Source of the DNA: Gracilariopsis chorda
Taxonomy: Eukaryota > Rhodophyta > Florideophyceae > Gracilariales > Gracilariaceae
DNA: 64,000 bases
NCBI GenBank assembly: GCA_003194525.1
Contig: NBIV01000163.1
Span: 124,001 to 188,000, forward strand
Direction: 5' to 3'
The notes beneath the pieces were generated by a model that searched no databases, had not been told where the DNA came from, and saw nothing but the letters and a program-made list of their open reading frames with translations. Shown here piece by piece: positions 9,320 through 36,853 of the stretch (within the stretch, counting starts at the first letter, position 1; each line of letters opens with the position of its first letter). A program made the position numbers and the translations under genes.

Positions 9320-10146
9320 TGTAGTGCAACGCCCTCAGGGAGGGATTTTTGGTACTTGAACGCTTTCCCGATATTATCGGTTGTGTAGTGTGTATATGAA
9401 CTACGCCCCACTATGGTGGATATGGACACGTGGGACACGGTTTTGGGTCAATTGGCGGTTGGCCACAGTAGTGGATGTTGCCACGAAATGTGGAGTATTT
9501 TAGTTAATATTATTTATTATTTTCACACCCATTTCTGGGAAGCTAGTACTTAGTGCGACGGCCCACTGCCGTCGCACCAGTAAAACTTCCCCAACAAGGG
9601 ACCCCAACCTGGGGAATTGGCTCTAGTTGTTACCGCTTGCGCGCGTGCTCTACTCCTCCTTGGAGGGAAACGCCGTGAACCACGGGACATCTAACCCCCT
9701 TGCACATCTAAAGGGACCCATCACTGGGAGTATAATTGTTCCAATTGCATTGGTGTTTCGCCCTGTATAGGGAGTCCTGTCCACCCGCATCGCCGTATCT
9801 GTTCGTCGCTCTCGCGACTCACTTCGTCCTCTCTTCCTCCTCTTCGTCCTTCCTTCTTCCCCTTTTTAGGGTAGCACCTCCCGCTATCCGCGGCCCTCGT
9901 GTGCGCATCCGCTCACACACCCCCACCTACGTGGAAACATACCTCTACTGAGGATCACACCCCGCTCACGCGGATACCGATTCTTCGCCTTCACCTCCCT
10001 GCGCAAGTCGCGACAGGTGTCCCTGGTCTTACAAACCGGCTTTGCCGTGACACCTCTGGGAGGGCTCTACCGAACTGGGTTCACCTCGTGAGAGGAAGAT
10101 CCCGAACGTCTTTCGGTGTTTTTCCCCTTTGGGGCATTGCACCACT
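9320..10146 (+). repeat. LTR 1 (5' LTR of gypsy copy 1)
   Basis: 827 bp from TGTAGTGCAA to TTGCACCAC[T/A], near-perfect short inverted ends. An AT-rich TATA-like stretch lies at about 9506-9523. A 10 bp perfect stem-loop (GTGCGACGGC / GCCGTCGCAC, 5 nt loop) follows at 9553-9577, near where transcription might begin. Many shorter hairpins follow. Confidence 0.95.
9553..9577 (+). promoter_or_regulatory. Conserved LTR stem-loop, possible 5' RNA structure
   Basis: Perfect 10 bp stem with a CCACT loop. It is also present in the other LTRs. In LTR 3 and the solo LTR the loop is GCACT and the stem is unchanged. It lies about 35 nt after a TATA-like tract, so it may sit at the 5' end of the genomic RNA. 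Confidence 0.5.
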
Positions 10147-10149
10147 AAG

Positions 10150-10170
10150 TGGTCTCCCGACCTAGAATCG
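10150..10170 (+). other. Primer-binding site, gypsy copy 1
   Basis: Starts TGGTCTCCCGACC three bases after the LTR. Its reverse complement ends in CCA, preceded by a 7 nt acceptor-like strand and CTAGG plus CGATT, which fits the 3' T-arm of a tRNA. The same sequence follows LTR 2 (18986-19006). I cannot name the tRNA. Confidence 0.6.
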
Positions 10171-10484
10171 GTTTTTGTTTTCCCTCTTACGAGGTTTGTT
10201 TTTATTCACCGGAAGTTCCGTGATCGTTTCCCGTCGTAACGGTATTTTCTCATGTCGAGAAATCCCTCCGATGCAGAGCCAGTGGTTACGCGTAGTTGCT
10301 CCCGCAACAACGCGGACACCTCCGAAGTTCGGTTCGTACCCCGTATCCCTATACGGACAAGTTTCAGCCGTACTGGCCCCGCTTCATCGCGGAATGATAC
10401 CCCCGACCGGGAACCCCAGAACCTCCTTTTGCCCTCTTTATCACCCCGCAGGGGAATGCAACATCGACTCCGGCTGTTGCCGCA

Positions 10485-12425
10485 ATGCCCCAGGCACCCC
10501 AGCCTGCTCCCGCTGTCGCGGCTTCAAGCCCCCGTGGAACGGGCGATAACACCTCCCAGGGGACTTCCCTGGAATCCCAGGTCCGCGCTCTGTGGACCGC
10601 CCATGACACCCTTGTAGGGGAACTAAAATCACTCCAAGAGGTGGTCTTGGCAACGCCCGTAAAGGAGGTCGCCGAGGAACTCCGTATTTTACGGTATGAC
10701 GTCAACTCCGTGTTGGAGAGTTTGGGACAACCCGCCACCTTCATCGAAGGAGTTGAAGCCCGATTTGATCGGATTGGTGCCCGCTTGGAGACGCTGGAGC
10801 AGTTCGTCCTCATGGACAAACCATCCCCGGGTGATCCGGTAAACGAGGCATCGCACAACGACCAGCTTGCTGGGAAGCAGAAACGCCGTCATCGACGGAA
10901 ACACCACCGAAAATATTCGGACTCCGATTCTTCGACATCGTCGGACTCATCCCGAAACCATTCGGTTAGCTCGAGCTCCTCGGACTCCGACTCGGAGGAC
11001 GAGAAGCGAGGCTACTCCTCCCGCTCGAAGCGGTCATCGGCTACTGAAGGTGTGGTCCGAACCCGCCAGAAGCGGAGAAGACACCCCGGTCTTCGGGAAT
11101 TGAAACCGACAAACCCGGATTACCGGAAGCTTTTATCATACCGGTACTACCTGCTCGAAGACTCGTCACTTGGACGTACGCCCCGTGGTACGGGAAATGT
11201 GCGAGAATGCATTAAGCGAATGCAGCTCTCGCTCCGCAACCAGTATTTTACTGGAGAGGACCCAGTCCTAGTACTGGATTTCCTATCCCGCTTTGTAGCG
11301 GAGGCCGATATCCTCGGTATGAATGAGGGACAAGCCTATTTGGCTTTACCGCATTTCTTACGGGGAGTGGCGGAGGACCAATACAACTCTGTCAGAGGAT
11401 CTTCTCGTGTCTCCGAGGGAGGAGTTACTTGCTGGCCGGAGGCTGTGCAGTATCTTCTGCGCTCCTACGCCACAAACACCACTATGCAGCAGGCTATCCT
11501 CGCTTTGCGAGATACACGCCAGCGTGCTGGAAAGACCGAGACCGATTACTCGGTGCGCCTTAACAAGGCTTTCCACAGATGTGGTAACGTATACCCCGCT
11601 GGGGAGCGCAGTACCATGTTCATCGATGGTCTTGACCCAGCAATCCGGAGTTTAGTTACCCGTTATCGGGAGGACAAGCGGAGGATCACCTATCTCGAGC
11701 TACTCCAACACGCCCGAGCGGAAGGGGATGCACTTCGTGCAAGAACTCCGAACAATCGGTCTAAATCCGCCAAGGCGTTGTTGCTGGAAAGCGAAGCTTC
11801 CTCACTCCCGCTCACCGCGGATTGGAACCCTGGACAGGGATTTGATACCGTGCATTTAGTGCAGGGGGATGGTGTGTCGATATCCACCAGTGATTTACCG
11901 TCAACGACGGAGATGACCCGTGATACGGGAACGGAAGACCCCGTTTTGTACGGTGGTAACAGTCGGGTTCAACCCCAACGACTCCCGTTTTCAAACGGTC
12001 AATCCCGTTATCAACGGCCTGGATGGACTGACACCCGCCCTGTGGTTCGCTTCTCCGATACTCGGAATAATAATCCGCGTGTCGCGGTATTGGCTCTCAT
12101 TTGCCACCTGTGCTATGCCCATGGCCATACCTCACCTCACTGTATTTGTTCACTGAAGGATATGGCCAAGGTAGTGGCAAATTATGAGGCCCTCACTCCA
12201 GAGGAGAAACGTTCCGTCCCAACGGCTTCCTACCTCCGTGCTAGAACGGACTTTTCCCATGCCCTGCCACAGACCCCACGTGCGCGGCAAGCTTCATACA
12301 CCCCGATTCGGGAGATCACGCAACCATCGGTTGCAACCCCCGCTTATGCGGATAGAAACCCCCGTCAACGGGATGAAGCACTCGTTGTCGAGGAAACCAA
12401 CCCACCGCCGAAGGCGGAAAACTAA
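10485..12425 (+). CDS. gag: Gypsy copy 1 Gag
   Basis: 646-residue structural protein that packages the element RNA. Starts at the ATG at 10485; an earlier ATG at 10456 is in another frame. Order: Pro/Ala-rich start; a helical, possibly coiled-coil segment about 28-115; a basic then Ser/Asp-rich and SR-like tract about 130-200 (RRHRRKHHRK, SDSDSSTSSD); a retrotransposon gag domain about 215-420 (YFTGEDPVLVLDFLSRFV); one CX2CX4HX4C zinc knuckle (CHLCYAHGHTSPHC) near 541. It ends TAA at 12423, with pol in the -1 frame overlapping its last 49 bases. The frame is intact. Confidence 0.93.
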   Translation: MPQAPQPAPAVAASSPRGTGDNTSQGTSLESQVRALWTAHDTLVGELKSLQEVVLATPVKEVAEELRILRYDVNSVLESLGQPATFIEGVEARFDRIGARLETLEQFVLMDKPSPGDPVNEASHNDQLAGKQKRRHRRKHHRKYSDSDSSTSSDSSRNHSVSSSSSDSDSEDEKRGYSSRSKRSSATEGVVRTRQKRRRHPGLRELKPTNPDYRKLLSYRYYLLEDSSLGRTPRGTGNVRECIKRMQLSLRNQYFTGEDPVLVLDFLSRFVAEADILGMNEGQAYLALPHFLRGVAEDQYNSVRGSSRVSEGGVTCWPEAVQYLLRSYATNTTMQQAILALRDTRQRAGKTETDYSVRLNKAFHRCGNVYPAGERSTMFIDGLDPAIRSLVTRYREDKRRITYLELLQHARAEGDALRARTPNNRSKSAKALLLESEASSLPLTADWNPGQGFDTVHLVQGDGVSISTSDLPSTTEMTRDTGTEDPVLYGGNSRVQPQRLPFSNGQSRYQRPGWTDTRPVVRFSDTRNNNPRVAVLALICHLCYAHGHTSPHCICSLKDMAKVVANYEALTPEEKRSVPTASYLRARTDFSHALPQTPRARQASYTPIREITQPSVATPAYADRNPRQRDEALVVEETNPPPKAEN

Positions 12426-12505
12426 CTGAGGGAGTCTCCCCTTTGGGAGAGGCGTCCTCAAGAACGAGGCTGTTGGCGCCCGAGGCGTCCTCGCCTCGCT
12501 CCCCG
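12377..12505 (+). promoter_or_regulatory. Candidate -1 frameshift region between gag and pol
   Basis: The pol frame is open from 12377 and overlaps gag to 12425, in the -1 frame, in both copies (second copy about 21213-21261). The pol frame has no ATG near its start. Just after the gag stop is a stem TCTCCC-CTTT-GGGAGA (about 12435-12450), then GAGGCG-TCCT-CGCCTC (about 12482-12497). A canonical slippery heptamer is not present; the run GGAAAAC lies just before the stop. Confidence 0.45.
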
Positions 12506-15500
12506 GTGAAAGTCCTCTCGAGGAAAGACACCGCTGACGCGGACTCTGCGCACCCCGGTGTGTTGCGTCGCCCGTGGATACGGAGTAAAAATCCCCGGAT
12601 TCCCGGTAGAGTCTTGGTCTTGGCCAAGCGCAACTATAAGGTCTATGCAGACCTTGGCCTTGACCCCCAGTTTATGGTGAGGTTTCTCACAGTCCTGGAT
12701 GCAGTGGCAGGCCCCAACTTTGTTGTGGAATCATTGTTACCCCCGCTTATGCGGTCGCGTATCCGCTCTGACGCGGTCCCCGACATTTCGGATGCGAACA
12801 ACAATCCGTTACAAACGGTGGGCACAGTGGACCTCGTCGTGAGACTTGGTACCTCTGTGGTGAAGTTGGACTTCATCGTTTGCCGTTCATTGGCAGCACC
12901 AGTGATACTGGGATGTGATTACTGCGACAGATTTGTCGACGCAATCAGGCCCCGCCTCAGGCGTGTAGAACTTGACGACGGATCGTCGGTTCCGATTGTT
13001 CGCCGCCCGCTAAAGCGGTCCTCTCGGAAACAAGTTCCGCTCCCTGCTGCGCAGGAACCACCGCCGGCGTCCCGCGAGTCCACCAAACTCCGCGTCGCTG
13101 CCTCGGTTTCTATACCGGCTGAGTCCCAAGTCTGGGTGCAGGTAAATTCCCGTCAACACGGTCTTCGGGTTATACAACCCATCGCCTCGTTGTACGAGAA
13201 ATCCCAGCTGGCGCTGGCTTATGGAATTGTCTCCATTTCCCCGGATGTTCCTTTCCGGATATTGGTTGCCAACCTTGGCAAACACCCCCAGTATCTGGTA
13301 AAACACCAAGTAACTGGGAGTGTAACCCCCCATCGTATGGGAATGCTGCCAACGAAGATGACAGCCGCCGATGTACTCGGAGTTACCACCTCTTCTGAGG
13401 AGTTCGCCCCGCCGTCCGAAGTCGTCAAGTCTAAGGAGAGGGAGGAAACCGCTACTTCAGCGTCGAACATACCGAGTAACTCGGAATTGCGAACCACACC
13501 TGTTCCACAGGACAATGCTACATCGAGCAACGACCGGATTGATCCGGAAAAAGCACTTGAAGCGCTGGACTTCAGCCACGTGCCAGAGTTGCACCGCGAC
13601 AAACTCCGTACCATGTTACGCGAATTCACCACAATGTGGTATGGCTCGCTTGGCGAGATTAATGCAACGGAAGACCGGATCGATTTAGTCCCCGGTGCGC
13701 GACCGGTTGCACAGCTCCCTTACAGGGCAGGTCCGAAAGCTCGGGAAGAGGAGCAGTCCCAAGTGGACAAGATGCTCTGCACAGGTGTGATTGAGCCCGC
13801 TCAATCACCCTGGGCATCCCCAGTGGTACTGGCTTTAGAGGCCGACGGAACCTGGAGGTTCTGTGTCGACTACCGCCGGCTCAATGCCGTGACCGTTAGG
13901 GACACGTACCCTATCCCTCGTATGGACGAGTGCATTGACTCCCTTGGAGACGCCACCGTGTTCACGGCCCTTGATGCCAATTGGGGATATTGGCAAGTAC
14001 CTGTCAGACAGGAGGATCGCGACAAAACCGCATTCACCTGCCACGCAGGAACGTACCGCTTCAAGCGGATGCCATTTGGTTTACCAAACGCCCCCGCCAC
14101 CTTTCAGCGTGCAGTAGATATTCTACTCAACTGCTTAAAGTGGCGGAGCTGTCTGGTCTACCTTGATGATATTATCATCTTCTCCAACTCGTTGGACGAC
14201 CATCTCACTCACGTCCGAGACGTGCTGACCGTACTCCGCGATGCGGGAATTACCCTCAAGTTGAGGAAATGCGAGTTTTTCACAGATACTGTGAAGTATC
14301 TGGGTCACATTATCCGTCCTGGACGGTTAGCGATCGAGAAAGCTCGAGTCAAATCCCTCGTCGAGGCGAAAGAGCCCCGTACTCAAACGGAACTGCGCTC
14401 CTTTCCGCGGCTGGTCAACGTCTACAGACGGTTTATCCCGAACTTTTCGGATACTGCGGCCCCCTGAACGCGTTGTTGCGAAAGGGGAACCCCCCAAAAC
14501 TGGGAACATTTACGCCCGAGCAATCGGAAGCCTTCAACTCCTTAAAGGAGGCTGTCACATCAGCACCAATCCTACATCTCCCAAAACTTGGGTTGCCATA
14601 CTCCGTAGATACGGACTCGAGCGACTACCAAGTCGGGTGTGCTCTTTTTCAAACCACCCCCGAGGGGGAACGACATCCAATTGGTTATTGGTCGCGCTCG
14701 CTCAATGTTCATGAGCGGAACTACTCCGTATCGGAGAAAGAGTGCCTCGCCGTCGTATGGGCGATGACCACTCTGCGCCCCTACCTTATGGGAATTCACT
14801 TCACCGTATACACGGATCATTCCTCATTGAGGTGGTTGATGAATATCTCCGACCCGTCGGGACGCCTCATGCACTGGAGACTCCGCCTCGCGGAATATGA
14901 CTTTCAAGTCATTTATAAAAAGGGCGCGCAGAACACCCAAGCCGACGCTCTGTCGCGGTTACACACAAGTGGGGAAGCACTCCCAACGGAGGATGATGAA
15001 GTCCCATGTTTCATGGCCACAGACCCGGATGATCCGGAATGTGCCATCGAGGCTGGGCCAGAAAACTGGGACGAGGATGCTGACTTTGACGAACTACTCG
15101 CATCGCGAGATAAATCTGAGAACCCGTTACCGGGAAACTTTGTACCGGTATCACCGGAAGAAATGATCCGAGAACAATTCGGCGACCCATTCTGTACGAG
15201 GATTCGTGCCCGTATCAACGGTGGTGAAGATCTCCCTTTCGGGGTAAACGACAAAGGCTACCTCGTAAGGAAGGTCGAAGCCCGCCCACAGATTGTGGTA
15301 CCACATTCCCTGCAATCGCGGGTGTTACATCTATCACACTACGCCCCAATCGGAGGTCACCCAAGTGGGAGGAAACTCTACCTAACCCTGCGAAGGGATT
15401 TCTATTGGCCCGCCATGGCGGTGGATTGCTACGCCACTGTGCGGTTCTGTAGCGAATGCGCGAAGAATCGCGCCAAGCTCCGCAAAAATGCGAAGATGAT

Positions 15501-17936
15501 GAAACTATTCCCCGCAAGGGCGCCGCTCGAGTTTATCGCGATCGATATTCTCGGACCACTACTCACCACGAAACGTGGAAACAAGTTTCTACTTGTCATT
15601 ATCGACCACTTTTCTAAGCTGGTACGGACTGTCCCTCTTCGGAGGATAACCGCTCTCACGGTGGCCCAGGCTCTGGTGACGCACTGGATTATCGTCTACG
15701 GTCTCCCTGTGGAGGTGCTCTCCGATAACGGGAAACAGTTCGTGAGCAAGGTCTTCCAGGATGTTTGTCGCATCCTGGATGTCAAGTACTTGTTCACGAC
15801 TTCCTACTACCCCCAGTGAAATGGGCAAGTTGAACGGTTTAACCGGACGTTACTCGCGGCGTTACGTTCCTACGTCGCAGACCACCCAAAGAACTGGGAC
15901 ATGTACGCTGATGCGGTAACCTACGCGTACAATACGCAGGTACACCGGACTACCGGAGTTTCGCCATTCGAGTTGGTTCTATCTACAACACCCCCGCCTG
16001 TGGCGCTGGAACCCCAAGCTACCTTGGACAATTTCCCATCTGTGGGTATCTACCGGCAGCAATGGAAGCAATGGCTTTCCAAGCTGGTCCCCGCTGCGCG
16101 GATGTCGATGGCACGGGCCCAAGCCGCTTACAAGCGGGATTTTGATGCTCGCTTGCGAGGGAAACCGTCCCCGCTTCGGGCGAATAACTACGTCTTCATC
16201 AGGAAGGAGTACTACAACCCGGAACGGGAGAAGCGCCATAAACTCTCGCCTGTGGCGGATGGACCATTCAAGGTCATCTCTGTAAACACCAACACTGTCG
16301 TGGTAGAGATTGGCGACACGCACGAACGGATTTCCCGTGATCGTGTTGTCCTTGCCCCTCCTCCCTCGTCAGAGGTAGTCCTGGATCCAGGCAACCCCGT
16401 TTCTACGGACTCTGCAACACCGGAACCATCCGGCAGTACTAGGCCTACGGTACCACCACACCCCAGCCGGGGACTCTCAGACCTACCGACTCTGTCGGAC
16501 TCACCGGCTCAGCTGGGTAATTCGGGCCTCTCAGCGCCCGCCCCTACCACGTCTGCTCCACTGGCGCGCATTTATGCCCGCCAGGCGGGGAATGTTATCC
16601 ATTATCCCGCCGCTCCGTCTAAGAAGGGGGAGGAGAACACTCGTTTTCGAGGAACGATATCGCCGTCGCAACGGGAAGTTGAAACGCAGCTACTGCACAC
16701 CCCCGTCAGGGAAGGATCCCCGTTACGGTAGTAAGGCGACGATCGCCCTCAATCCCCTGAGCAGGGCGACGCCTCGAACCCGCCGTTGGCGGAAGTCCCC
16801 GCGGAAGCGGTTCAATCAGGCCAATCAGACCCGCGCCTTGCGGAGAAGAGGAGCCCAGATACACCAGCGCCGCTGGGAAATCCCCACACCCAACCTGGGG
16901 AAAAAGGCAGCCAAGCCGCAGCCGAAGCTTCGGGCCCTGGCCCACAAGCGCCGGAAACGCCTCCCGTCGTCGACGGAATTGAAGCCCCCATTCCGGGGAA
17001 TAATTTGCGCCACCTCCCGCAACGCTGCGGGGAAGAACCGAGGAACTCGGAAAAAGCGCACGCCATCGCACGCTCGAAACCGGTCATACCGGACGCTGCT
17101 CCTCCGCGTGGAGACGGTGCACCGCACTTAGCCGCCAAGCCCCTGAAAAGGGTGTCATCGGCACCTGCCCGGCACCCCCCAAAGGGGAATTTTGACCAAA
17201 ATACCGGTGTACCGGACTTAGCCCCAGGCAACCCGTCAGTAGCCGGGGACACCACGGCGTCGCCGGAACGTATGGTGCAGAGCGCTCGTGCGCCTGGCAG
17301 GGAGGCGGTTTCCACCCAATCACCGTGTCGCACGGCACCCCCTAGGGGATTGTGGAAATGCCGATTCCGCAGGAGCGGTCATCTTCCCGCAAACTCGCGG
17401 TTCGTGAGCTCAACCGCGAAGGCGGAGCCCAAGTCCCCCGCCGACTGGCGGTTCGCCCGCATTACCGCGAAAGCGGAAATGAACCTGCCCCCATGGGGAA
17501 TGACTTGCCGATGAAAACCGTGGCACCACACACCCTCTTGAGGGATATCTTCCCGCATGAGCAGCGGCCGCTATCACAGCGCACGGCAACGCCGGAGTTA
17601 TCGCCGAACACCCTGCTAAGGGACATTATACCGCACAGCGGGCAGCCCCCGCAAGGAAGTACAGCCACCACCCGGCACGGCCGGCAGGTCTACAAACGAG
17701 AGTTCGTAGTAGACCGACTTGTCAGACACACCTGGGACCAGGATGGTATTCTACAATACCGCGTCCGCTGGTACAGGTACGACCCCAGTGGGGATACGTC
17801 GGAGCCAATTGAACACCTCCCACGGTCGCAGGTCCTGCGATACCACCGTCAAACGGGAACTGCAGCCCCGCCACGCTGGTTAATGCCCAAGTTGGGTAAC
17901 GTTGCCGCGCGAGCGGAGGGCGATAGGAAAGTATAA
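12377..17936 (+). pseudogene. pol: Gypsy copy 1 Pol: protease-RT-RNase H-integrase-linker-chromodomain, broken
   Basis: Protease region near 12690-12960 has active-site D-A-V-A-G where copy 2 has D-T-V-A-G. RT follows, with FCVDYRRLNAVT and YLDD (about 14158). A one-base loss in a C run (14460-14464, five C against six in copy 2) ends the frame at 14467. RNase H (YTDHSSLRWL) and integrase with HHCC finger and Asp residues continue in the next frame to a TGA at 15817-15819, just before the Glu-bearing segment. The C-terminal integrase (GPY/F-like) runs to TAG at 16729. A Pro/Ala/Arg-rich linker of about 1 kb follows, with a further one-base loss near 17310 and 248 bp missing relative to copy 2 near 16677. 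A chromodomain ends it (about 17698-17865). It can no longer make a full polyprotein. Confidence 0.9.
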
Positions 17937-18155
17937 CAAGGCATGGTCCGTCGAAGACGGGGAACTCAACCGAGAAACACCGTTCTAAACGGGAAAGTTT
18001 ATTCAAGGGAGCAGCTAGCTCCCCACAACACTATACTACAATAGCCGGCTATGCCAGGAAAGAAGAACCAGAGACGGCGTACGCGCTTTTATCACCCATT
18101 TTCGTCTGGGAACCCTCCGCGTCCGCGCTCGTTTTCCCGTCTTAGGGGGGGGATA
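17937..18155 (+). other. Gypsy copy 1 3' UTR with remnant of antisense ORF start and polypurine tract
   Basis: It matches both ends of the 3' region of copy 2 but lacks the ~1.78 kb between them. On the minus strand the ATG and first codons of the antisense ORF survive (MGDKSA...), then run into unrelated sequence. Eight G followed by ATA (18145-18155) directly before the LTR is the polypurine tract. Confidence 0.75.
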
Positions 18156-18982
18156 TGTAGTGCAACGCCCTCAGGGAGGGATTTTTGGTACTTGAACGCT
18201 TTCCCGATATTATCGGTTGTGTAGTGTGTATATGAACTACGCCCCACTATGGTGGATATGGACACGTGGGACACGGTTTTGGGTCAATTGGCGGTTGGCC
18301 ACAGTAGTGGATGTTGCCACGAAATGTGGAGTATTTTAGTTAATATTATTTATTATTTTCACACCCATTTCTGGGAAGCTAGTACTTAGTGCGACGGCCC
18401 ACTGCCGTCGCACCAGTAAAACTTCCCCAACAAGGGACCCCAACCTGGGGAATTGGCTCTAGTTGTTACCGCTTGCGCGCGTGCTCTACTCCTCCTTGGA
18501 GGGAAACGCCGTGAACCACGGGACATCTAACCCCCTTGCACATCTAAAGGGACCCATCACTGGGAGTATAATTGTTCCAATTGCATTGGTGTTTCGCCCT
18601 GTATAGGGAGTCCTGTCCACCCGCATCGCCATATCTGTTCGTCGCTCTCGCGACTCACTTCGTCCTCTCTTCCTCCTCTTCGTCCTTCCTTCTTCCCCTT
18701 TTTAGGGTAGCACCTCCCGCTATCCGCGGCCCTCGTGTGCGCATCCGCTCACACACCCCCACTTACGTGGAAACATACCTCTACTGAGGATCACACCCCG
18801 CTCACGCGGATACCGATTCTTCGCCTTCACCTCCCTGCGCAAGTCGCGACAGGTGTCCCTGGTCTTACAAACCGGCTTTGCCGTGACACCTCTGGGAGGG
18901 CTCTACCGAACTGGGTTCACCTCGTGAGAGGAAGATCCCGAACGTCTTTCGGTGCTTTTCCCCTTTGGGGCATTGCACCACA
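18156..18982 (+). repeat. LTR 2 (shared middle LTR)
   Basis: 827 bp, TGTAGTGCAA to TTGCACCACA. It is preceded by the polypurine tract of copy 1 and followed by the primer-binding site of copy 2, so it serves as 3' LTR of one and 5' LTR of the other. By eye about four differences from LTR 1. Confidence 0.95.
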
Positions 18983-18985
18983 AAG

Positions 18986-19006
18986 TGGTCTCCCGACCTA
19001 GAATCG
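18986..19006 (+). other. Primer-binding site, gypsy copy 2
   Basis: Identical to the site at 10150, three bases after LTR 2, starting TGGTCTCCCGACC. Confidence 0.6.
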
Positions 19007-19320: not shown

Positions 19321-21261
19321 ATGCCCCAGGCACCCCAGCCTGCTCCCGCTGTCGCGGCTTCAAGCCCCCGTGGAACGGGCGATAACACCTCCCAGGGGAC
19401 TTCCCTGGAATCCCAGGTCCGCGCTCTGTGGACCGCCCATGGCACCCTTGTAGGGGAACTAAAATCACTCCAAGAGGTGGTCTTGGCAACGCCCGTAAAG
19501 GAGGTCGCCGAGGAACTCCGTATTTTACGGTATGACGTCAACTCCGTGTTGGAGAGTTTGGGACAACCCGCCACCTTCATCGAAGGAGTTGAAGCCCGAT
19601 TTGATCGGATTGGTGCCCGCTTGGAGACGCTGGAGCAGTTCGTCCTCATGGACAAACCATCCCCGGGTGATCCGGTAAACGAGGCATCGCACAACGACCA
19701 GCTTGCTGGGAAGAAGAAACGACGTCATCGACGGAAACACCACCGAAAATATTCGGACTCCGATTCTTCGACATCGTCGGACTCATCCCGAAACCATTCG
19801 GTTAGCTCGAGCTCCTCGGACTCCGACTCGGAGGACGAGAAGCGAGGCTACTCCTCCCGCTCGAAGCGGTCATCGGCTACTGAAGGTGTGGTCCGAACCC
19901 GCCAGAAGCGGAGAAGACACCCCGGTCTTCGGGAATTGAAACCGACAAACCCGGATTACCGGAAGCTTTTATCATACCGGTACTACCTGCTCGAAGACTC
20001 GTCACTTGGACGTACGCCCCGTGGTACGGGAAATGTGCGAGAATGCATTAAGCGAATGCAGCTCTCGCTCCGCAACCAGTATTTTACTGGAGAGGACCCA
20101 GTCCTAGTACTGGATTTCCTATCCCGCTTTGTAGCGGAGGCCGATATCCTCGGTATGAATGAGGGACAAGCCTATTTGGCTTTACCGCATTTCTTACGGG
20201 GAGTGGCGGAGGACCAATACAACTCTGTCAGAGGATCTTCTCGTGTCTCCGAGGGAGGAGTTACTTGCTGGCCGGAGGCTGTGCAGTATCTTCTGCGCTC
20301 CTACGCCACAAACACCACTATGCAGCAGGCTATCCTCGCTTTGCGAGATACACGCCAGCGTGCTGGAAAGACCGAGACCGATTACTCGGTGCGCCTTAAC
20401 AAGGCTTTCCACAGATGTGGTAACGTATACCCCGCTGGGGAGCGCAGTACCATGTTCATCGATGGTCTTGACCCAGCAATCCGGAGTTTAGTTACCCGTT
20501 ATCGGGAGGACAAGCGGAGGATCACCTATCTCGAGCTACTCCAACACGCCCGAGCGGAAGGGGATGCACTTCGTGCAAGAACTCCGAACAATCGGTCTAA
20601 ATCCGCCAAGGCGTTGTTGCTGGAAAGCGAAGCTTCCTCACTCCCGCTCACCGCGGATTGGAACCCTGGACAGGGATTTGATACCGTGCATTTAGTGCAG
20701 GGGGATGGTGTGTCGATATCCACCAGTGATTTACCGTCAACGACGGAGATGACCCGTGATACGGGAACGGAAGACCCCGTTTTGTACGGTGGTAGCAGTC
20801 GGGTTCAACCCCAACGACTCCCGTTTTCAAACGGTCAATCCCGTTATCAACGGCCTGGATGGACTGACACCCGCCCTGTGGTTCGCTTCTCCGATACTCG
20901 GAATAATAATCCGCGTGTCGCGGTATTGGCTCTCATTTGCCACCTGTGCTATGCCCATGGCCATACCTCACCTCACTGTATTTGTTCACTGAAGGATATG
21001 GCCAAGGTAGTGGCAAATTATGAGGCCCTCACTCCAGAGGAGAAACGTTCCGTCCCAACGGCTTCCTACCTCCGTGCTAGAACGGACTTTTCCCATGCCC
21101 TGCCACAGACCCCACGTGCGCGGCAAGCTTCATACACCCCGATTCGGGAGATCACGCAACCATCGGTTGCAACCCCCGCTTATGCGGATAGAAACCCCCG
21201 TCAACGGGATGAAGCACTCGTTGTCGAGGAAACCAACCCACCGCCGAAGGCGGAAAACTAA
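19321..21261 (+). CDS. gag: Gypsy copy 2 Gag
   Basis: 646 residues, same length and layout as the Gag of copy 1 with only a few substitutions: helical N-terminal segment, basic and Ser/Asp-rich tract, gag domain, and one CX2CX4HX4C knuckle near residue 541. Starts at the ATG at 19321. The stop TAA is followed by the same two hairpins as in copy 1, and pol again overlaps in the -1 frame. The frame is intact, so two nearly identical Gag genes lie 8.8 kb apart. Confidence 0.93.
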   Translation: MPQAPQPAPAVAASSPRGTGDNTSQGTSLESQVRALWTAHGTLVGELKSLQEVVLATPVKEVAEELRILRYDVNSVLESLGQPATFIEGVEARFDRIGARLETLEQFVLMDKPSPGDPVNEASHNDQLAGKKKRRHRRKHHRKYSDSDSSTSSDSSRNHSVSSSSSDSDSEDEKRGYSSRSKRSSATEGVVRTRQKRRRHPGLRELKPTNPDYRKLLSYRYYLLEDSSLGRTPRGTGNVRECIKRMQLSLRNQYFTGEDPVLVLDFLSRFVAEADILGMNEGQAYLALPHFLRGVAEDQYNSVRGSSRVSEGGVTCWPEAVQYLLRSYATNTTMQQAILALRDTRQRAGKTETDYSVRLNKAFHRCGNVYPAGERSTMFIDGLDPAIRSLVTRYREDKRRITYLELLQHARAEGDALRARTPNNRSKSAKALLLESEASSLPLTADWNPGQGFDTVHLVQGDGVSISTSDLPSTTEMTRDTGTEDPVLYGGSSRVQPQRLPFSNGQSRYQRPGWTDTRPVVRFSDTRNNNPRVAVLALICHLCYAHGHTSPHCICSLKDMAKVVANYEALTPEEKRSVPTASYLRARTDFSHALPQTPRARQASYTPIREITQPSVATPAYADRNPRQRDEALVVEETNPPPKAEN

Positions 21262-24200
21262 CTGAGGGAGTCTCCCCTTTGGGAGAGGCGTCCTCAAGAA
21301 CGAGGCTGTTGGCGCCCGAGGCGTCCTCGCCTCGCTCCCCGGTGAAAGTCCTCTCGAGGAAAGACACCGCTGACGCAGACTCTGCGCACCCCGGTGTGTT
21401 GCGTCGCCCGTGGATACGGAGTAAAAATCCCCGGATTCCCGGTAGAGTCTTGGTCTTGGCCAAGCGCAACTATAAGGTCTATGCAGACCTTGGCCTTGAC
21501 CCCCAGTTTATGGTGAGGTTTCTCACCGTCCTGGATACAGTGGCAGGCCCCAACTTTGTTGTGGAATCATTGTTACCCCCGCTTGTGCGGTCTCGTATCC
21601 GCCCTGACGCGGTCCCCGACATTTCGGATGCGAACAACAATCCGTTACAAACGGTGGGCACAGTGGACCTCGTCGTGAGTCTTGGTACCTCTGTGGTGAA
21701 GTTGGAATTCATCGTTTGCCGTTCATTGGCAGCACCAGTGATACTGGGATGTGATTACTGCGACAGATTTGTCGACGCAATCAGGCCCCGCCTCAGGCGT
21801 GTAGAACTTGACGACGGATCGTCGGTTCCGATTGTTCGCCGCCCGCTAAAGCGGTCCTCTCGGAAACAAGTTCCGCTCCCTGCTGCGCAGGAACCACCGC
21901 CCGCGTCCCGCGAGTCCACCAAACTCCGCGTCGCTGCCTCGGTTCCTATACCGGCTGAGTCCCAAGTCTGGGTGCAGGTAAATTCCCGTCAACACGGTCT
22001 TCGGGTTATACAACCCATCGCCTCGTTGTACGAGAAATCCCAGCTGGCGCTGGCTAATGGAATTGTCTCCATTTCCCCGGATGTTCCTTTCCGGATATTG
22101 GTTGCCAACCTTGGCAAACACCCCCAGTATCTGTTAAAACACCAAGTAATTGGGAGTGTAACCCCCCATCGTATGGGAATGCTGCCAACGAAGATGACAG
22201 CCGCCGATGTACTCGGAGTTACCACCTCTTCTGAGGAGTTCGCCCCGCCGTCCGAAGTCGTCAAGTCTAAGGAGAGGGAGGAAACCGCTACTTCAGCGTC
22301 GAACATACCGAGTAACTCGGAATTACGAACCACACCTGTTCCACAGGGCAATGCTCCGTCGAGCAACGACCGGATTGATCCGGAAAAAGCACTTGAAGCG
22401 CTGGACTTCAGCCACGTGCCAGAGTCGCACCGCGACAAACTCCGTACCATGTTACGCGAATTCACCACAATGTGGTATGGCTCGCTTGGCGAGATTAATG
22501 CAACGGAACACCGGATCGATTTAATCCCCGGTGCGCGACCGGTTGCACAACCCCCTTACAGGGCAGGTCCGAAAGCTCGGGAAGAGGAGCAGTCCCAAGT
22601 GGACAAGATGCTCTGCACAGGTGTGATTGAGACCGCTCAATCACCCTGGGCATCCCCAGTTGTACTGGCTTTAGAGGCCGACGGAACCTGGAGGTTCTGT
22701 GTCGACTACCGCCGGCTCAATGCCGTGACCGTTAGGGACACGTACCCTATCCCTCGTATGGACGAGTGCATTGACTCCCTTGGAGACGCCACCGTGTTCA
22801 CGGCCCTTGATGCCAATTGGGGATATTGGCAAGTACCTGTCAGACAGGAGGATCGCGACAAAACCGCATTCACCTGCCACGCAGGAACGTACCGCTTCAA
22901 GCGGATGCCATTTGGTTTACCAAACGCCCCCGCCACCTTTCAGCGTGCAGTAGATATTCTACTCAACTGCTTAAAGTGGCGGAGCTGTCTGGTCTACCTT
23001 GATGATATTATCATCTTCTCCAACTCGTTGGACGACCATCTCACTCACGTCCGAGACGTGCTGACCGTACTCCGTGATGCGGGAATTACCCTCAAGTTGA
23101 GGAAATGCGAGTTTTTCACAGATACTGTGAAGTATCTGGGTCACATTATCCGTCCTGGACGGTTAGCGATCGAGAAAGCTCGAGTCAAATCCCTCGTCGA
23201 GGCGAAAGAGCCCCGTACTCAAACGGAACTGCGCTCCTTTCCGCGGCTGGTCAACGTCTACAGACGGTTTATCCCAAACGTTTCGGATACTGCGGCCCCC
23301 CTGAACGCGTTGTTGCGAAAGGGGAACCCCCCAAAACTGGGAACATTTACGCCCGAGCAATCGGAAGCCTTCAACTCCTTAAAGGAGGCTGTCACATCAG
23401 CACCAATCCTACATCTCCCAAAACTTGGGTTGCCATACTCCGTAGATACGGACTCGAGCGACTACCAAGTCGGGTGTGCTCTTTTTCAAACCACCCCGAG
23501 GGGGAACGACATCCAATTGGTTATTGGTCGCGCTCGCTCAATGTTCATGAGCGGAACTACTCCGTATCGGAGAAAGAGTGCCTCGCCGTCGTATGGGCGA
23601 TGACCACTCTGCGCCCCTACCTTATGGGAATTCACTTCACCGTATACACGGATCATTCCTCATTGAGGTGGTTGATGAATATCTCCGACCCGTCGGGACG
23701 CCTCATGCACTGGAGACTCCGCCTCGCGGAATATGACTTTCAAGTCATTTATAAAAAGGGCGCGCAGAACACCCAAGCCGACGCTCTGTCGCGGTTACAC
23801 ACAAGTGGGGAAGCACTCCCAACGGAGGATGATGAAGTCCCATGTTTCATGGCCACAGACCCGGATGATCCGGAATGTGCCATCGAGGCTGGGCCAGAAA
23901 ACTGGGACGAGGATGCTGACTTTGACGAACTACTCGCATCGCGAGATAAATCTGAGAACCCGTTACCGGGAAACTTTGTACCGGTATCACCGGAAGAAAT
24001 GATCCGAGAACAATTCGGCGACCCATTCTGTACGAGGATTCGTGCCCGTATCAACGGTGGTGAAGATCTCCCTTTCGGGGTAAACGACAAAGGCTACCTC
24101 GTAAGGAAGGTCGAAGCCCGCCCACAGATTGTGGTACCACATTCCCTGCAATCGCGGGTGTTACATCTATCACACTACGCCCCAATCGGAGGTCACCCAA

Positions 24201-26985
24201 GTGGGAGGAAACTCTACCTAACCCTGCGAAGGGATTTCTATTGGCCCGCCATGGCGGTGGATTGTTACGCCACTGTGCGGTTCTGTAGCGAATGCGCGAA
24301 GAATCGCGCCAAGCTCCGCAAAAATGCGAAGATGATGAAACTATTCCCCGCAAGGGCGCCGCTCGAGTTTATCGCGATCGATATTCTCGGACCACTACTC
24401 ACCACGAAACGTGGAAACAAGTTTCTACTTGTCATTATCGACCACTTTTTTAAGCTGGTACGGACTGTCCCTCTTCGGAGGATAACCGCTCTCACGGTGG
24501 CCCAGGCTCTGGTGACGCACTGGATTATCGTCTACGGTCCCCCTGTGGAGGTGCTCTCCGATAACGGGAAGCAGTTAGTGAGCAAGTTCTTCCAGGATGT
24601 TTGTCGCATCCTGGATGTCAAGAACGTGTTCACGACTACTTACCACCCCCATTGTAATGGGCAAGTTGAACAGTTTAACCGGACGTTACTCGCGGCGTTA
24701 CGTTCCTACGTCGCTGACCACCCAACGAATTGGGATCTCTACGCTGATGCGGTAACCTACGCGTACCATACGCAGGTACACCGGACTACCGGAGTTTCGC
24801 CATCCGAGTTGGTTCTATCTAGAACACCCCCGCCTATGGCGCTGGAACCCCAAGCTACCTTGGACAATTTCCCATCAGTGGGTATCTACCGGCAGCAATG
24901 GAAGCCATGGCTTTCCAAGCTGGTCCCCGCTGCGGGGAAGTCTATGGCACGTGCGCAAGCCGCGTACAAGCGGAATTTCGACACTCGCTTGCGAGGGAAA
25001 CCGTCCCTGATTCGGGCGAATAACTACGTCTTCATCAGGAAGGAGTACTACAACCCGGAACGGGAGAAGCGCCATAAACTCTCGCCTATGGCGGATGGAT
25101 CATTCAAGGTCATCTCTGTAAACACCGACACTGTCGTGGTAGAGATGGGCGACACGCACGAACGGATTTCCCGTGATCGTGTTGTCCTTGCCCCTCCTCC
25201 CTCGTCAGAGGTAGTCCTGGATCCAGGCAACCCCGTTTCTACGGACTCTGCAACACCGGAACCATCCGGGAGTACTAGACCTACGGTACTACCAAACCCC
25301 AGCTGGGGACTCTCAGACCTACCGACTCTGTCGGACTCACCGGCTCAGCCGGGTAATTCGGGCCCCTCAGCGCCCGCACCTACCACGTCCGCCCCACTGG
25401 CGCGCATCTATACCCGCCAGGCGGGGAATGTTATCCCTTATCCCGCCGCTCCGTCTAAGGAGGGGGAGGAGAACACTCGTTTTCGAGGAACGATATCGCC
25501 GTCGCAACGGGAAACACACCGTAACATACGGAACACTGACCGTGGAGCACGGAGTATGTCACGCGACACTAATCCCCGTTCCCGGGCAGTGCTGTGCAAC
25601 AGGAACCAGACGCGCAGGCCCCGCAAAAGCGGCAAATACACCGTTTGTCACGGGAAAACGAGAAGCCTCACTCCAATACCGCAGCAGCGGAAAGGCAATC
25701 GCCCAATCCATCCCCGGAGGCATCGCCACAAACGCGGAAAACATACCGTGCTACACAGGAAGTTGAAGCGCAACTACCGCACACCCCTGTCAGGGAAGGA
25801 TCCCCGACAAGGGAGTATGGTGACGATTGCACCCAATCCCCTGAGCAGGGCGATGCCTCGAAGCCGCCGTTGGCGGAAGTCCCCGCGGAAGCGGTTCAAT
25901 CAGGTCGATCAGACCCGCGCCTTGCGGAGAAGGGGCGCCCAGATACGCCGGCCTCACAGGGAAATACCCACACCCCTGTTGGGGAAAAAGGCAGCCAAGC
26001 CGCAGTCGAAGCTTTAAGCCCTGCCTCGCAAGCACCGGAAACGCCTCCCGTCGTTGACGGAATCGAAGCCCCCGCTACGGGGAATAATTTGCGCCAACCC
26101 CCGCAACGCTGCGGCGAAGAACCGAGGAACTCGGGAATAACGCGCGCCATCGCACGCTCGAAACCGGTCGTACCGGACGCTGCTCCTCCTCATGGAGAAG
26201 GTGCACCGCGCTTAGCGGCAATTCCCCTGAAAAGGGTGTCATCGGCACCTGCCCGGCACCCCCCAAAGGGGAATTTTGACCAAAATACCGGTGTACCGGA
26301 GTTAGCCCCAGGCAACCCGTCAGTAGCCGGGGACACCACGGCATCACCGGAACGTATGGTGCAGAGCGCTCGTGCGCCTGGCAGGGAGGCGGTTTGCCAC
26401 CCAATCACCGTGTCGCACGGGACCCCCCAGGGGATTGTGGAAATGCCGATCCCGCAGGAGCGGTCATCTTCCCGCAAACTCGCGGTTCGTGAGCTCAACC
26501 GCGAAGGCGGAGCCCAAATCCCCCGCCGACTGGCGGTTCGCCCGCAATACCGCGAAAGCGGAAATGAACCTGCCCCAATGGGGAATGACTCACCGGTGAA
26601 AACCGTGGCACCACACACCCTCTTGAGGGATATCTTCCCGAATGAACAGCGGCCGCTATCACAGCGCACGGCAACGCCGGAGTTATCGCCGAACACCCTG
26701 CTAAGGGACATTATACCGCACAGCGGGCAGCCCCCGCAAGGAAGTACAGCCACCACCCGGCACGGCCGGCATGTCTACAAACGAGAGTTTGTAGTGGACC
26801 GACTTGTCGGACACACCTGGGACCAGGATGGTATTCTACAATACCGCGTCCGCTGGTACGGGTATGACCCCAGTGGGGATACGTCGGAGCCAATCGAACA
26901 CCTCCCACGGTCGCAGGTCCTGCGATACCACCGTCAAACGGGAACTGCAGCCTCAGTCACGCTGGTTAATGTCCAAGTTGGGTAA
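21213..26985 (+). pseudogene. pol: Gypsy copy 2 Pol: protease-RT-RNase H-integrase-linker-chromodomain, one clear break
   Basis: Protease keeps the D-T-V-A-G active site and the ILGCDYCDRF end. RT has YLDD near 22994. A one-base loss in a C run at about 23503-23506 (four C against five in copy 1) moves RNase H and integrase into the next frame. Integrase keeps the HHCC finger, both Asp and the Glu (IDILGP, SDNGKQ, NGQVEQFNR), with a GPY/F-like end. The linker and chromodomain (REFVVDRLV ... YRVRWYGYDP ... TSEPIEHL, about 26785-26950) lie in the -1 frame relative to integrase. The two frames overlap between 25594 and 26017. The chromodomain has Ser where the usual TWEP motif has Trp. Confidence 0.9.
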
Positions 26986-27176
26986 CGTTGCGGCGCGAGC
27001 GGAGAGCGAAAGGAAAGGATAACAAGGCAAAGTCCGTCGAAGACGGGGAACTCAACCGAGAAGCACCGTTCTAAACAGGAAAGTTTATTCAAGGGAGCAG
27101 CTAGCTCCCCACAATACTACACTACACTAACTGGCATAGCCAGGGAAAGAAGAACCAGGAAACTGGACTAGAGGGT

Positions 27177-28964
27177 TCACTCACCCCCATCGTCCGGGGC
27201 GTAACCCCCAGCAAGGCGGTAGGCCAACGCGTCCGCCATGGTGGTGACATCCCCCGATACCTCGGCAGCGCTAAGACCGGCACCCCGGAGGAAACGTGCG
27301 ATGATTTCGTTTTCATTCGCCGTCAACCCGCTGGGGATAGAAGGTCCAGCACTTGCCGCCGAAGGGTCAGCAGCCGGCTCGGCCGGAGATACCCCCTCTG
27401 GGAAAGCTTCCGCGCTAGCGCCGGTTTCCTCTACGTCCATCTCCCCGGGTTCTTCCGGTTCGTTATCGACCATTGGGTCATCCCCGCCGTATGCGCGGTA
27501 GTAGTCGTCAGAATCGACGTACCCCACCGGGTGGTCTTCCGGCACATGCTGGGGCGTATCGCGAAGCTCGCGCGCCTCCTCGGAGGAAATTTCCCGGAAC
27601 TCTTAGGGGTCAAAATAGATAAAATCCCCCGCAAGGGCGGTGTTTCTACCGAGTCCCGGACCACCGGTGTTACCGCTGCCGCCATCCAGACGACCGCTTT
27701 GCTCCAGCGGGACCTCACTCCAGCTAACGCTGTCGATGTACCCAAGTAATTGGAGGACCTCTTCATTGTTGGCCTGGCCCCCAAGGGGGATGCGAAGATC
27801 CAGGTTTCGGATCGCTGCCCGCACACGCGGTTGAAGGAACCAGAGACGATACTGGTCGTACGCCTCGTTGAGGATATAAGCCGCAGTGCGGGCCGCCCAC
27901 TCCGTAACCACTACGGACCACAACCCCGACCGGGGATCCTGCATGAGCAGCGAACCGAGATACGTAGGTACCGGCGGGAGTTCTATGTAGCATCCCCGGC
28001 AGGCTTCATGGAAGCGCCACCACTCGGGGAGTGCTACATACCGACCTAGTCGGTGAGGCGGCGCAATCCGCTCTATCTCCACGTTCTGATACGGGATAAA
28101 ATACCCGAATCGGGATCGCCAACGCCGCTCGTAGCGGATGAAGTTTTGGAGAAAGCTGGACCGGTATTGCCGGGGAAGGTACCTGAACTCCGCCCGAATA
28201 ATCGGTCGCTCCCAGCAAAGGGCTTCTTGCCGCGCTGCGGGGAAATTCCTCCAAGCGAGGGTCTCGAGGCGGAACAGGTTCTCGCCGTACCCAATCTCCC
28301 GGCGAGTGCCGAAGTAGCTAACGTCGAAGCCAAACTCCGGTGGGACCGGTACATCGAATGGAGCCCGGCTCTGCCGTTGATACGCCATGCGCGTCAACGC
28401 AGTCTGTGCCGCAGCGACGGTCTCGCCCGAATTTCTTCGGAGGTGGTGACGCGGAATCGCAATCCGGTGACGCCAATCCCACGATGTGGTGACTGCTCTG
28501 GGCAGATCCCCCGGAAGGGTGTCTGAGCCATCCGCATAAGCGGTGACCAATCCCTCATTGAGGACAGCGACCGGGTGAAACCACGGGGCAAGGCGCAGGC
28601 GCGACGCGTGATTCCGATTCATCGGGTTGAGCCCCACGAGGGTGTTGTAAGTTGGCCAGTTGGACACCGGAGTGGTTCCGGAGGACACCACCGAAGGTGG
28701 TAATGCGAAGGGATGGTCGGCTGCAGCAGCCATATTCCCCGGTTGTACCGGATTTCGATCGCCCTGAGGCAGGGGAACTGACCGGAAACCGGTGGTGTAT
28801 CGCCCGAGAAGTTTCGGAGGTTGGCTGTGGTTGTTGATGTTGTTGTCGTCGTTCGTTTTTCCCTTTTGGAGGGTGGCTGTTGTTGTTGTTTGTGCACTCG
28901 GTGACTCTGATGCAGAGGGATTTACCGGAGAACCAGAGACAGAGCACGCGCTTTTATCACCCAT
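27177..28964 (-). CDS. Antisense ORF in the 3' region of gypsy copy 2 (one in-frame stop)
   Basis: Between chromodomain and 3' LTR, on the opposite strand. From the ATG at 28964 a 453-residue frame runs to TAA at 27603-27605, and the same frame then stays open for about 141 more codons to 27177. The first part has a Thr/Asn-rich N-terminus (about 25-50), then an Arg-, Trp- and Tyr-rich body (RYERRWRSRFGYF, LPEWWRFHEACRGCYIEL). The part after the stop is strongly acidic (DDYYRAYGGDD, EPEEPGEMDVEE) and ends in an Ala/Gly-rich segment. I recognise no domain. Antisense ORFs at this place are known in some plant gypsy elements (Ogre/Retand-type); homology here is not shown. A promoter would have to lie in or near the 3' LTR. 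Confidence 0.6.
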
Positions 28965-29008
28965 TTTCGTCTGGGAATCCTCCGCGTCCGCGGTCGTTTT
29001 CCCTTCTT

Positions 29009-29021
29009 AAGGGGGGGGATA
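29009..29021 (+). other. Polypurine tract, gypsy copy 2
   Basis: AA, eight G, ATA directly before the TG of LTR 3. It matches the tract before LTR 2. Confidence 0.75.
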
Positions 29022-29828
29022 TGAAGTGCAACGCCCTCACGGAGGGATTCTTGGTACTTGAACGCTTTCCCGATATTATCGGTTGTGTAGTGTGTATATG
29101 AACTACGCCCCACTATGGTGGATATGGACACGTGGGACACGGTTTTGGGTCAATTGGCGGCTGGCCACAGTAGTGGATGTTGCCACGAAATGTGGAGTAT
29201 TTTAGTTAATATCATTTATTATTTTCACACCCATTTCTGGGAAGCTAGTACTTAGTGCGACGGCGCACTGCCGTCGCACCAGTAAATCTTCCCCAACAAG
29301 GGACCCCAACCTGGGGATTTGGCTCTAGTTGTTGCCGCTTGCGCGCGTACTCTACTCCTCCTTGGAGGGAAACGCCGTAAACCACGGGACATCTAACCCC
29401 CTTGCACATCTAAAGAAACCCATCACTGGGAGTATAATTGTTCCAATCATATTGGTGTTTCGCCCTGTATAGGGAGTCCTGTCCACCGGCATTGCCGTAT
29501 CTGCTCCTCGCTCTCGCGACCCACTTCGTCCTTCCTTCTTCCCCTTTTTAGGGTAGCACCTCCCGCTATCCGCGGCCCTCGTGTGCGCATCCGCTCACAC
29601 TTCCCCACTTACGTGGAAACATACCTCTACTGAGGATCACACCCCGCTCACGCGGATACCGATTCTTTGCCTTCACCTCCCTGCGCGAGTCGCGACAGGT
29701 GTCCCTAGTCTTACAAACCGGCTTCGCTGTGACACCTCTGGGAGGGCTCTACCCAACTGGGTTCACCTCGTGAGAGGAAGATCCCGAACGTCTTTCGGTG
29801 TTTTTCCCCTTTGGGGCATTGCACCACA
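29022..29828 (+). repeat. LTR 3 (3' LTR of gypsy copy 2)
   Basis: 807 bp, starting TGAAGTGCAA and ending TTGCACCACA. It has more differences from LTR 2 than LTR 1 has, plus a ~20 bp deletion in the CT-rich part. It abuts the leader of the copia element directly. Confidence 0.93.
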
Positions 29829-36773: not shown

Positions 36774-36853
36774 TGTGAGACGACTGGGCTACAAAAGTGT
36801 CCGGCCAGACACTGATGCGAGCTTGTCCAGCGATACTTGTAGTGAGCTTCCAC
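36774..36853 (+). repeat. 80 bp direct repeat, copy A
   Basis: Almost identical to 37138-37217 (copy B), 364 bp downstream in the same direction. It starts TGTGAGACGACTGGGCTAC. Confidence 0.85.

What the first reader, a model, noticed from the sequence alone, without database searches (positions are those of the whole stretch)
9320..29828. Gypsy family saturated with short perfect hairpins in LTR, UTR, gag, pol and antisense ORF
Short perfect inverted repeats, mostly CC-ended 4-5 bp stems with 3-5 nt loops, occur about once per 40 bp by eye. Examples in gag: CCGTATTTTACGG (10682), CCGATTTGATCGG (10760), CCGTCATCGACGG (10886), CCGCTCGAAGCGG (11021), CCAGTATTTTACTGG (11240), CCGCTTTGTAGCGG (11288). 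Of 11 I placed in 10682-11301, 8 start at a third codon position, yet LTRs and the leader carry them too (CCTCCTTGGAGG, CCGTGAACCACGG, CCTCTTACGAGG). Between LTR copies several changes fall in loops: AGG/ACG in the first hairpin, TAT/AAT in the second, CCACT/GCACT in the long stem, C/T in CCAC[C/T]TACGTGG. Nearby copia and host genes show no such density on spot checks. Coding need alone does not explain it. It may be an RNA-packaging or anti-silencing structure, or the result of a mutational process that makes short hairpins.
Basis: partly seen in the sequence, partly recalled or inferred. Interest (0 to 1): 0.88.

Follow-up and report, generated by a model that had tools for sequence, protein, structure and literature searches.

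The report
Jumping gene saturated with tiny hairpins
A family of jumping genes in a red seaweed carries hundreds of tiny self-complementary hairpins, far more than chance allows, in a pattern that fits no known kind of genome-wide structure well, so it may be a new sort of structural code used while the element copies itself.

Summary
Element 1 (9320-18155) has 379 perfect hairpins of 4 bp or more against 130 in dinucleotide shuffles; those with a CC/GG base number 181 against 15. Codon shuffles do not explain it. Copia, helitron, Argonaute and reductase ORFs are at chance. The host is a red alga.

Related gypsy families in the same genome, and one relative from another record, are enriched too, but base motifs differ and most positions are not shared. 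Favoured loops are 3-4 nt.

Singleton (mostly post-insertion) mutations hit stems and loops alike. Inherited LTR variants almost avoid CC-hairpin stems: 0.8 of 150 stem, 6.5 of 68 loop, 28.7 of 455 outside sites. So the hairpins seem to be kept during replication. Gag CC stems show no depletion relative to loops.

Pairing is close to strictly Watson-Crick: G-U versions are near background, also at matched RNA stability, which argues against plain sense-RNA folding; the RNA-phage yardstick is mixed.

Best guess: a selected array of docking hairpins read by the element's own Gag/nucleocapsid where DNA, or both strands, count.

The parts
9320..10141 (+). LTR 1 of element 1 (822 bp), hairpin-rich
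   Evidence: repeats, alignment over 822 bp; bases 9320-9915: 24 hairpins against 7.4, CC 14 against 0.9
10142..10484 (+). leader of element 1, hairpin-rich
   Evidence: bases 10000-10484: 25 against 6.9, CC 11 against 0.6
10485..12425 (+). gag ORF of element 1, 646 aa, with the six gag hairpins quoted in the finding
   Evidence: CC 42 against 3.2 in dinucleotide shuffles and 4.3 in codon shuffles
12102..12143 (+). CCHC zinc-knuckle-like motif of Gag (aa 540-553), candidate reader of the hairpins (inferred)
   Evidence: translation; its C and H columns are invariant or nearly so among 19 Gag relatives; motif name recalled, no Pfam hit
12443..15819 (+). pol of element 1, lying in ORFs of different frames: RT, RNase H, integrase zinc-binding and core domains
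   Evidence: CC hairpins 35 against 2.6 (12443-14464) and 26 against 1.8 (14269-15816)
15817..18155 (+). 3' part of element 1, with chromodomain ORF 17352-17936
   Evidence: bases 15817-17936: CC 51 against 4.7
18156..18977 (+). LTR shared by elements 1 and 2
19321..26985 (+). gag and pol ORFs of element 2, again in several frames, with RT, RNase H, integrase and chromodomain
27603..28964 (-). antisense ORF of element 2, 453 aa, hairpin-rich
   Evidence: CC 27 against 3.1; a relative in another hairpin-rich locus, L051, 54% aa identity over 402 aa in one frame
29022..29823 (+). third LTR (802 bp)
50059..50878 (-). further family-A LTR, 94.9% identical to LTR 1
   Evidence: sequence read

Best explanation
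A clade of red-algal Ty3/gypsy chromoviruses carries an element-wide array of micro-hairpins: stem of 4-5 bp, loop of 3-4 nt, a family-specific base (CC/GG in family A and the L009 family; TC and CC in the L014 family) and usually at least 6 nt of linker. SHOWN: the excess; its physical-hairpin geometry; near-strict Watson-Crick pairing; different positions and base motifs between families; no protection against singleton (mostly post-insertion) mutations; and, in the LTR, strong avoidance of CC stems by inherited variants. INFERRED: selection acts while the element is a single-stranded replication intermediate, and the hairpins are docking sites for an element-encoded nucleic-acid-binding protein, most likely the zinc-knuckle part of Gag, used to recognise, coat or condense the element's own genome. 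Because a G-U hairpin seems to be worth no more than an A-C one, the form that counts is probably single-stranded cDNA, or both strands, rather than the sense RNA alone.
For: Excess over dinucleotide and codon shuffles and over window and flanking controls. Loops of 3 and 4 nt dominate; the smaller excess at 1-2 nt is about what chance pairing of the loop ends would give (my estimate). Inherited LTR variants: CC stems 0.8 of 150 sites, loops 6.5 of 68, outside 28.7 of 455; singletons .264/.284/.241. Pooled with W1 as reference 10 of 972 stem sites against 81 of 2131 others, p 5e-6. Within-family gain/loss mostly by single bases. Family-specific base motifs. Linkers under 6 nt rare, 6 of 237. 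Watson-Crick 176 against 13.1, single G-U 12 against 10.7, single A-C 21 against 13.3. Enrichment is lowest (4.8) when both inner pairs are A-T. Gag carries basic stretches and a CCHC knuckle.
Against: Gag CC stems show no depletion of inherited variants against loops (8.2 of 338 and 3.1 of 133), and leader stems none. With three other reference copies the pooled odds ratio is only .55-.63, p .01-.05. Hairpin positions are mostly not conserved between families (20 of 107, 19 of 107, 20 of 90 shared centres). The sense-strand A after the base is modest (.49 against .35 at other GG sites, p 5e-4) and absent in the antisense-ORF part. G-U intolerance is odd for a simple RNA-packaging signal, and a DNA-stage function has no direct support.
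Confidence: 0.4

Rival explanations
1. Mutational origin: the element's reverse transcriptase folds the nascent DNA strand back on itself and copies one arm, turning imperfect hairpins into perfect ones over many rounds (quasi-palindrome correction). The CC/GG base would be the anchor for returning to the template.
For: Strict Watson-Crick pairing whatever the mismatch type; enrichment hardly falls with RNA stability; absent from copia, helitron and host ORFs; positions turn over between families; arm homogenisation of short inverted repeats by template switching is documented in yeast (PMC8604942, found passages).
Against: Inherited LTR variants avoid CC stems; by my estimate a correction rate that fits the enrichment (about 8-9 times the point-mutation rate) would barely deplete them at this divergence. 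17 of 18 inherited hairpin-lacking forms differ by one base and one compensatory switch was found, although one-mismatch correction would also look like single changes. Two clustered changes between elements 1 and 2 did not fit one-arm copying. Stems are not faster evolving between families. A fixed CC/GG base needs an extra assumption.
Confidence: 0.22
2. Sense-RNA signals: dispersed packaging or genome-wide ordered RNA structure, as in RNA viruses, selected in the genomic RNA only.
For: Hairpin geometry, whole-transcript spread, modest sense-strand A after the base, folding energy lower than shuffles on both strands (z -1.41 plus, -1.14 minus).
Against: At matched RNA stability near -3 kcal/mol Watson-Crick is 78 against 4.0 and one-G-U 5 against 3.4; over the listed bins one-G-U is 16 against about 12, with one bin (-1.0) at 4 against 1.0. 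G-U and A-C are equal in family A (1.11 and 1.11). The copia element also has a plus-strand folding z of -0.95, so the energy signal is not distinctive. The yardstick is weak: five RNA phages pooled give G-U 1.21 and A-C 1.09, but MS2 (1.19, 1.18) and Qbeta (1.13, 1.23) alone show no such difference.
Confidence: 0.2
3. Shield against RNA silencing: hairpins in both sense and antisense transcripts slow sense-antisense pairing and so the production of small RNAs.
For: A requirement on both strands would give strict Watson-Crick pairing; the host has an Argonaute and element 2 has an antisense ORF that is conserved in another locus.
Against: Does not explain the family-specific base or the 3-4 nt loop preference; antisense transcription and small RNAs were not examined.
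Confidence: 0.08
4. Artefact of base composition, codon use or selective reading.
For: The elements are GC-richer than most of the window.
Against: Dinucleotide and codon shuffles, distant-spacing controls and near-chance GG-based hairpins (20 against 14.4) exclude it.
Confidence: 0.01

Closest known systems
Ty3/gypsy chromoviruses
   Same: LTRs, gag, RT, RNase H, integrase and chromodomain
   Different: Hairpin saturation. Of 20 gypsy-like loci found in other records only the closest relative, L080, reaches 2.0; L081 is 1.22 and the other 18 range from 0.78 to 1.35
Multiple dispersed packaging signals of RNA viruses (review PMC6281560, found passages)
   Same: Many short stem-loops with a shared recognition feature spread over the genome
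   Different: Here the shared feature is the stem base, pairing is near-strictly Watson-Crick with G-U no better than A-C, and no coat or Gag binding is shown
Genome-scale ordered RNA structure (name recalled; search listing only)
   Same: Structure along the whole genome
   Different: Here defined micro-hairpins with a fixed base and size rather than a general folding-energy excess; the energy z is modest and similar on both strands
Template-switch homogenised inverted repeats (PMC8604942, found passages)
   Same: Perfect short inverted repeats at the DNA level
   Different: The yeast study searched arms of at least 7 bp and multi-base changes; here arms are mostly 4-5 bp, within-family changes are mostly single bases and LTR stems avoid inherited variants

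Membership tests
Ty3/gypsy chromovirus | RT and RNase H before integrase, with LTRs | tested here: met
   Pfam matches RVT_1, RT_RNaseH, Integrase_H2C2, rve in order; LTRs
Ty3/gypsy chromovirus | Chromodomain at the C-terminal end of the integrase region | tested here: met
   PF00385 in ORFs 17352-17936 and 25594-26985
Ty3/gypsy chromovirus | tRNA primer-binding site next to the 5' LTR | not tested
   Only looked at by eye at 10142-10160; no tRNA comparison made
Dispersed RNA packaging signals | Many stem-loops along the genome sharing a recognition motif | tested here: met
Dispersed RNA packaging signals | Selection on the RNA fold, so that G-U pairs are partly accepted | tested here: not met
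   the phage yardstick is mixed, so the expectation itself is only loosely calibrated
Dispersed RNA packaging signals | Binding by the coat or Gag protein promotes assembly | not testable with these tools
   No binding data
Genome-scale ordered RNA structure | Folding energy below sequence-order controls, beyond that of ordinary genes | tested here: inconclusive
   z -1.41 in element 1, but -0.95 in the copia element
Template-switch homogenised inverted repeats | Perfect arms irrespective of mismatch type | tested here: met
   All single-mismatch classes near background
Template-switch homogenised inverted repeats | Multi-base changes that replace one arm by the complement of the other | tested here: not met
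   17 of 18 inherited hairpin-lacking forms differ by one base; one compensatory pair

The most novel reading that the evidence does not exclude
A retroelement clade has turned its whole genome, LTRs and both coding strands included, into a strict Watson-Crick hairpin code with a family-specific base. The code is read in single-stranded cDNA, or on both strands, by an element-encoded protein, and it drifts between families together with that protein.
Probability: 0.35. Interest if true: 0.92.

Novelty: categorically new. Interest (0 to 1): 0.85.

Why it matters
In element 1 about 43% of the bases lie in a perfect short hairpin (23% in CC-based ones), while the same DNA codes for proteins, and the pattern departs from RNA-fold selection in a testable way. 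If an element protein reads it, it gives a clean system for the open question of how retroelements recognise and condense their own genomes, with a natural experiment in families that use different base motifs. If instead the reverse transcriptase makes it, a polymerase error signature would dominate a whole element. Nine literature searches listed no paper whose title or abstract start describes such a pattern; the library lacks most subscription journals and two of these papers were looked into by passages only.

Tried and rejected
Codon-phase effect: rejected. Protein need: rejected by codon shuffles. Dimer-type palindromic DNA-binding sites: rejected, because loops of 3-4 nt dominate and loop 0 is at background (39 against about 37). 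RNA thermodynamic selection: disfavoured by energy-matched G-U counts. A-rich sense flank as a strong polarity signal: looked strong, shrank against other GG sites. Lattice periodicity: spacing variation is like random placement (CV .72 against .76) apart from a minimum linker. Known RNA families in 9300-29900: none at gathering thresholds. Relatives in viral contigs: none encoding a relative. Compensatory change between families: 22 changed stems at shared centres in three comparisons against about 15 chance coincidences, weak. My first idea that missing one-mismatch relics exclude a mutational origin was dropped: by my reasoning an equilibrium of either model leaves one-mismatch forms at background. 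The comparison of correction and selection rates is my own estimate, not a simulation.
Full report
What was checked. The window is part of a 91.3-Mb genome in 1081 contigs. Relatives of Gag and RT include Agarophyton chilense proteins, and the best match of the window's Argonaute is Chondrus crispus, 54% identity over 87%; the host is therefore taken to be a red alga, species not identified. Two tandem Ty3/gypsy chromoviruses share the middle LTR: LTRs 9320-10141, 18156-18977 and 29022-29823, with RT, RNase H, integrase and chromodomain matches.

Is the density real? Yes. With loops of 3-6 nt, element 1 has 379 perfect stems of 4 bp or more against 129.8 in dinucleotide shuffles, and 181 with a CC base against 15.4; element 2 has 454 against 161.5 and 215 against 18.8. 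GG-based hairpins are near chance in element 1 (20 against 14.4) and slightly raised in element 2 (29 against 18.6). The parts tested, including LTR, leader and antisense-ORF region, are all enriched. Helitron, copia, reductase, thioesterase-like, 35-kb and Argonaute ORFs are at chance. Over 144 non-family 600-bp windows the ratio is 1.14, over 154 family windows 4.01; the strongest non-family windows lie in L051, L074 and L053, of which L051 and L074 are hairpin-rich over longer stretches and look like further kin. Shuffling synonymous codons 200 times gives a mean of 4.3 CC hairpins in gag against 42 observed.

What kind of repeat? Inverted repeats stand out. Direct and mirror repeats show no comparable excess, though single spacings are raised (for instance direct repeats in L014, 34 against 14.3), and simple complements are mildly raised in element 1 (69 and 74 against 35). 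Loops whose ends cannot pair peak at 3 and 4 nt (105 and 101; 29 at loop 7). The CC-to-GG length peaks at 12-13. Inner pairs take all four Watson-Crick types. Non-overlapping hairpins of all kinds cover 43% of element 1, CC ones 23%. Linkers under 6 nt are rare (6 of 237).

Who else has it? RVT_1 hits in the same genome gave 30 loci, L009-L038. Seven of them are of the L009 type (about 69% nucleotide identity), with CC bases 12-15 times over shuffles; 23 are of the L014 type (about 67%), as hairpin-rich overall, with CC 5-7 times over shuffles and, in L014 itself, TC (29 against 5.2) beside CC (28 against 2.5) at the base. L078, 74% identical, is at 41 against 16.8; a gypsy without nucleotide similarity, L077, at 10 against 18.8; a copia, L079, at 34 against 25.0; each is only 1.2 kb. 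A scan of bacterial and archaeal genome records found 20 gypsy-like loci, apparently eukaryotic contaminants of MAGs. The closest relative, L080 (49% aa identity), is at 151 against 75.3, L081 at 1.22, the other 18 from 0.78 to 1.35; L080 has no CC excess in codon shuffles (5 against 4.2) though its total is raised (71 against 39.5). Shared hairpin centres between families are 20 of 107, 19 of 107 and 20 of 90, against about 5 by chance. The trait is thus found across this clade while sites turn over.

When is it maintained? 43 LTRs, 19 leaders and 18 gags of family A were aligned as separate pieces. Singletons, mostly post-insertion, fall about equally in stems, loops and outside. So do differences between eight LTR pairs assigned to one insertion by coordinates (stem .0223, loop .0224, outside .0158); three of these pairs differ at 25-31 sites and may not be true pairs. 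Inherited variants (minor allele in 4 or more LTRs) are in CC stems at 0.8 of 150 sites, in their loops 6.5 of 68, outside 28.7 of 455, averaged over every copy as reference. The averaging undercounts stem variants somewhat, since a copy that lacks the hairpin counts the site as outside, but hardly by the factor seen. In gag the CC stems show no depletion against loops (8.2 of 338, 3.1 of 133; outside 37.6 of 1077) and leader stems are not depleted. Pooled with W1 as reference: 10 of 972 stem sites against 81 of 2131 others, p 5e-6; three other references gave odds ratios .55-.63, p .01-.05. One compensatory C-G/T-A switch was found, and 17 of 18 inherited hairpin-lacking forms differ by one base.

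RNA or DNA? For CC..GG at length 12-13 in family A, both inner pairs Watson-Crick: 176 against 13.1; one G-U beside one Watson-Crick: 12 against 10.7; one A-C: 21 against 13.3; one other mismatch: 48 against 48.7. At equal RNA stability near -3 kcal/mol (family A plus L009) Watson-Crick is 78 against 4.0 and one-G-U 5 against 3.4; at -1 it is 9 against 0.9 and 4 against 1.0. Enrichment is lowest, 4.8-fold, when both inner pairs are A-T. As a yardstick, five RNA phages gave Watson-Crick 1.68, G-U 1.21, A-C 1.09, and family A 3.55, 1.11, 1.11; but MS2 and Qbeta alone show no G-U over A-C difference, so the yardstick is loose. RNA folding energy is modestly below shuffles on both strands of element 1 (z -1.41 and -1.14), while copia has -0.95 and -0.49. 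This suits a DNA hairpin, a requirement on both strands, or arm copying, better than a sense-RNA fold. The sense-strand A after the base is modest and absent in the antisense-ORF part.

Interpretation. Ordinary purifying selection on perfect hairpins accounts for the enrichment, for one-mismatch forms at background and for the LTR polymorphism. Arm copying accounts for strict pairing but, by my estimate, not for the LTR polymorphism. The family-specific base points to a reader that changes with the family; Gag carries basic stretches and a CCHC knuckle and is the natural candidate, but nothing here shows binding. It works like a dispersed binding-site array; it is not filed as a packaging-signal system because the RNA-level feature was tested and not met.

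Noticed in passing
27603-28964 (- strand); L051:1921-3075: The antisense ORF of element 2 (453 aa, no Pfam or NCBIfam match) has a relative in L051 at 54% aa identity over 402 aa in a single frame, so it looks like a real gene; in L044 it lies in three frames.
   Followed up: partly
9320-29823: Tandem arrangement of two elements that share the middle LTR; element 1 lacks a stretch of about 250 bp and the antisense-ORF region present in element 2.
   Followed up: partly
10142-10152: A CC hairpin (CCAC-TAA-GTGG) directly follows the end of LTR 1, where a primer-binding site would be expected.
   Followed up: no
L080-L099: Gypsy-like elements in records titled as bacterial or archaeal MAGs, apparently eukaryotic contamination; L080 (in a record titled Robiginitomaculum) is the closest relative of the window's element.
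   Followed up: partly
L080: Its enrichment favours odd spacers (5-bp stems: loop 1, 21; loop 3, 27; background 5.0) without a clear base motif.
   Followed up: partly
L081: A weaker relative (36% aa identity) with CG-based inverted repeats raised, 38 against 16.5.
   Followed up: no
36774-36853 and 37138-37217: Two 80-bp copies 99% identical, 364 bp apart; not explained.
   Followed up: no
46381-46477 and 52798-52894: Two 97-bp copies 91% identical, 6.4 kb apart; not explained.
   Followed up: no
41903-45010 (- strand): Argonaute in one uninterrupted ORF of 1035 aa with ArgoN, PAZ and Piwi matches; best match Chondrus crispus, 54%.
   Followed up: partly
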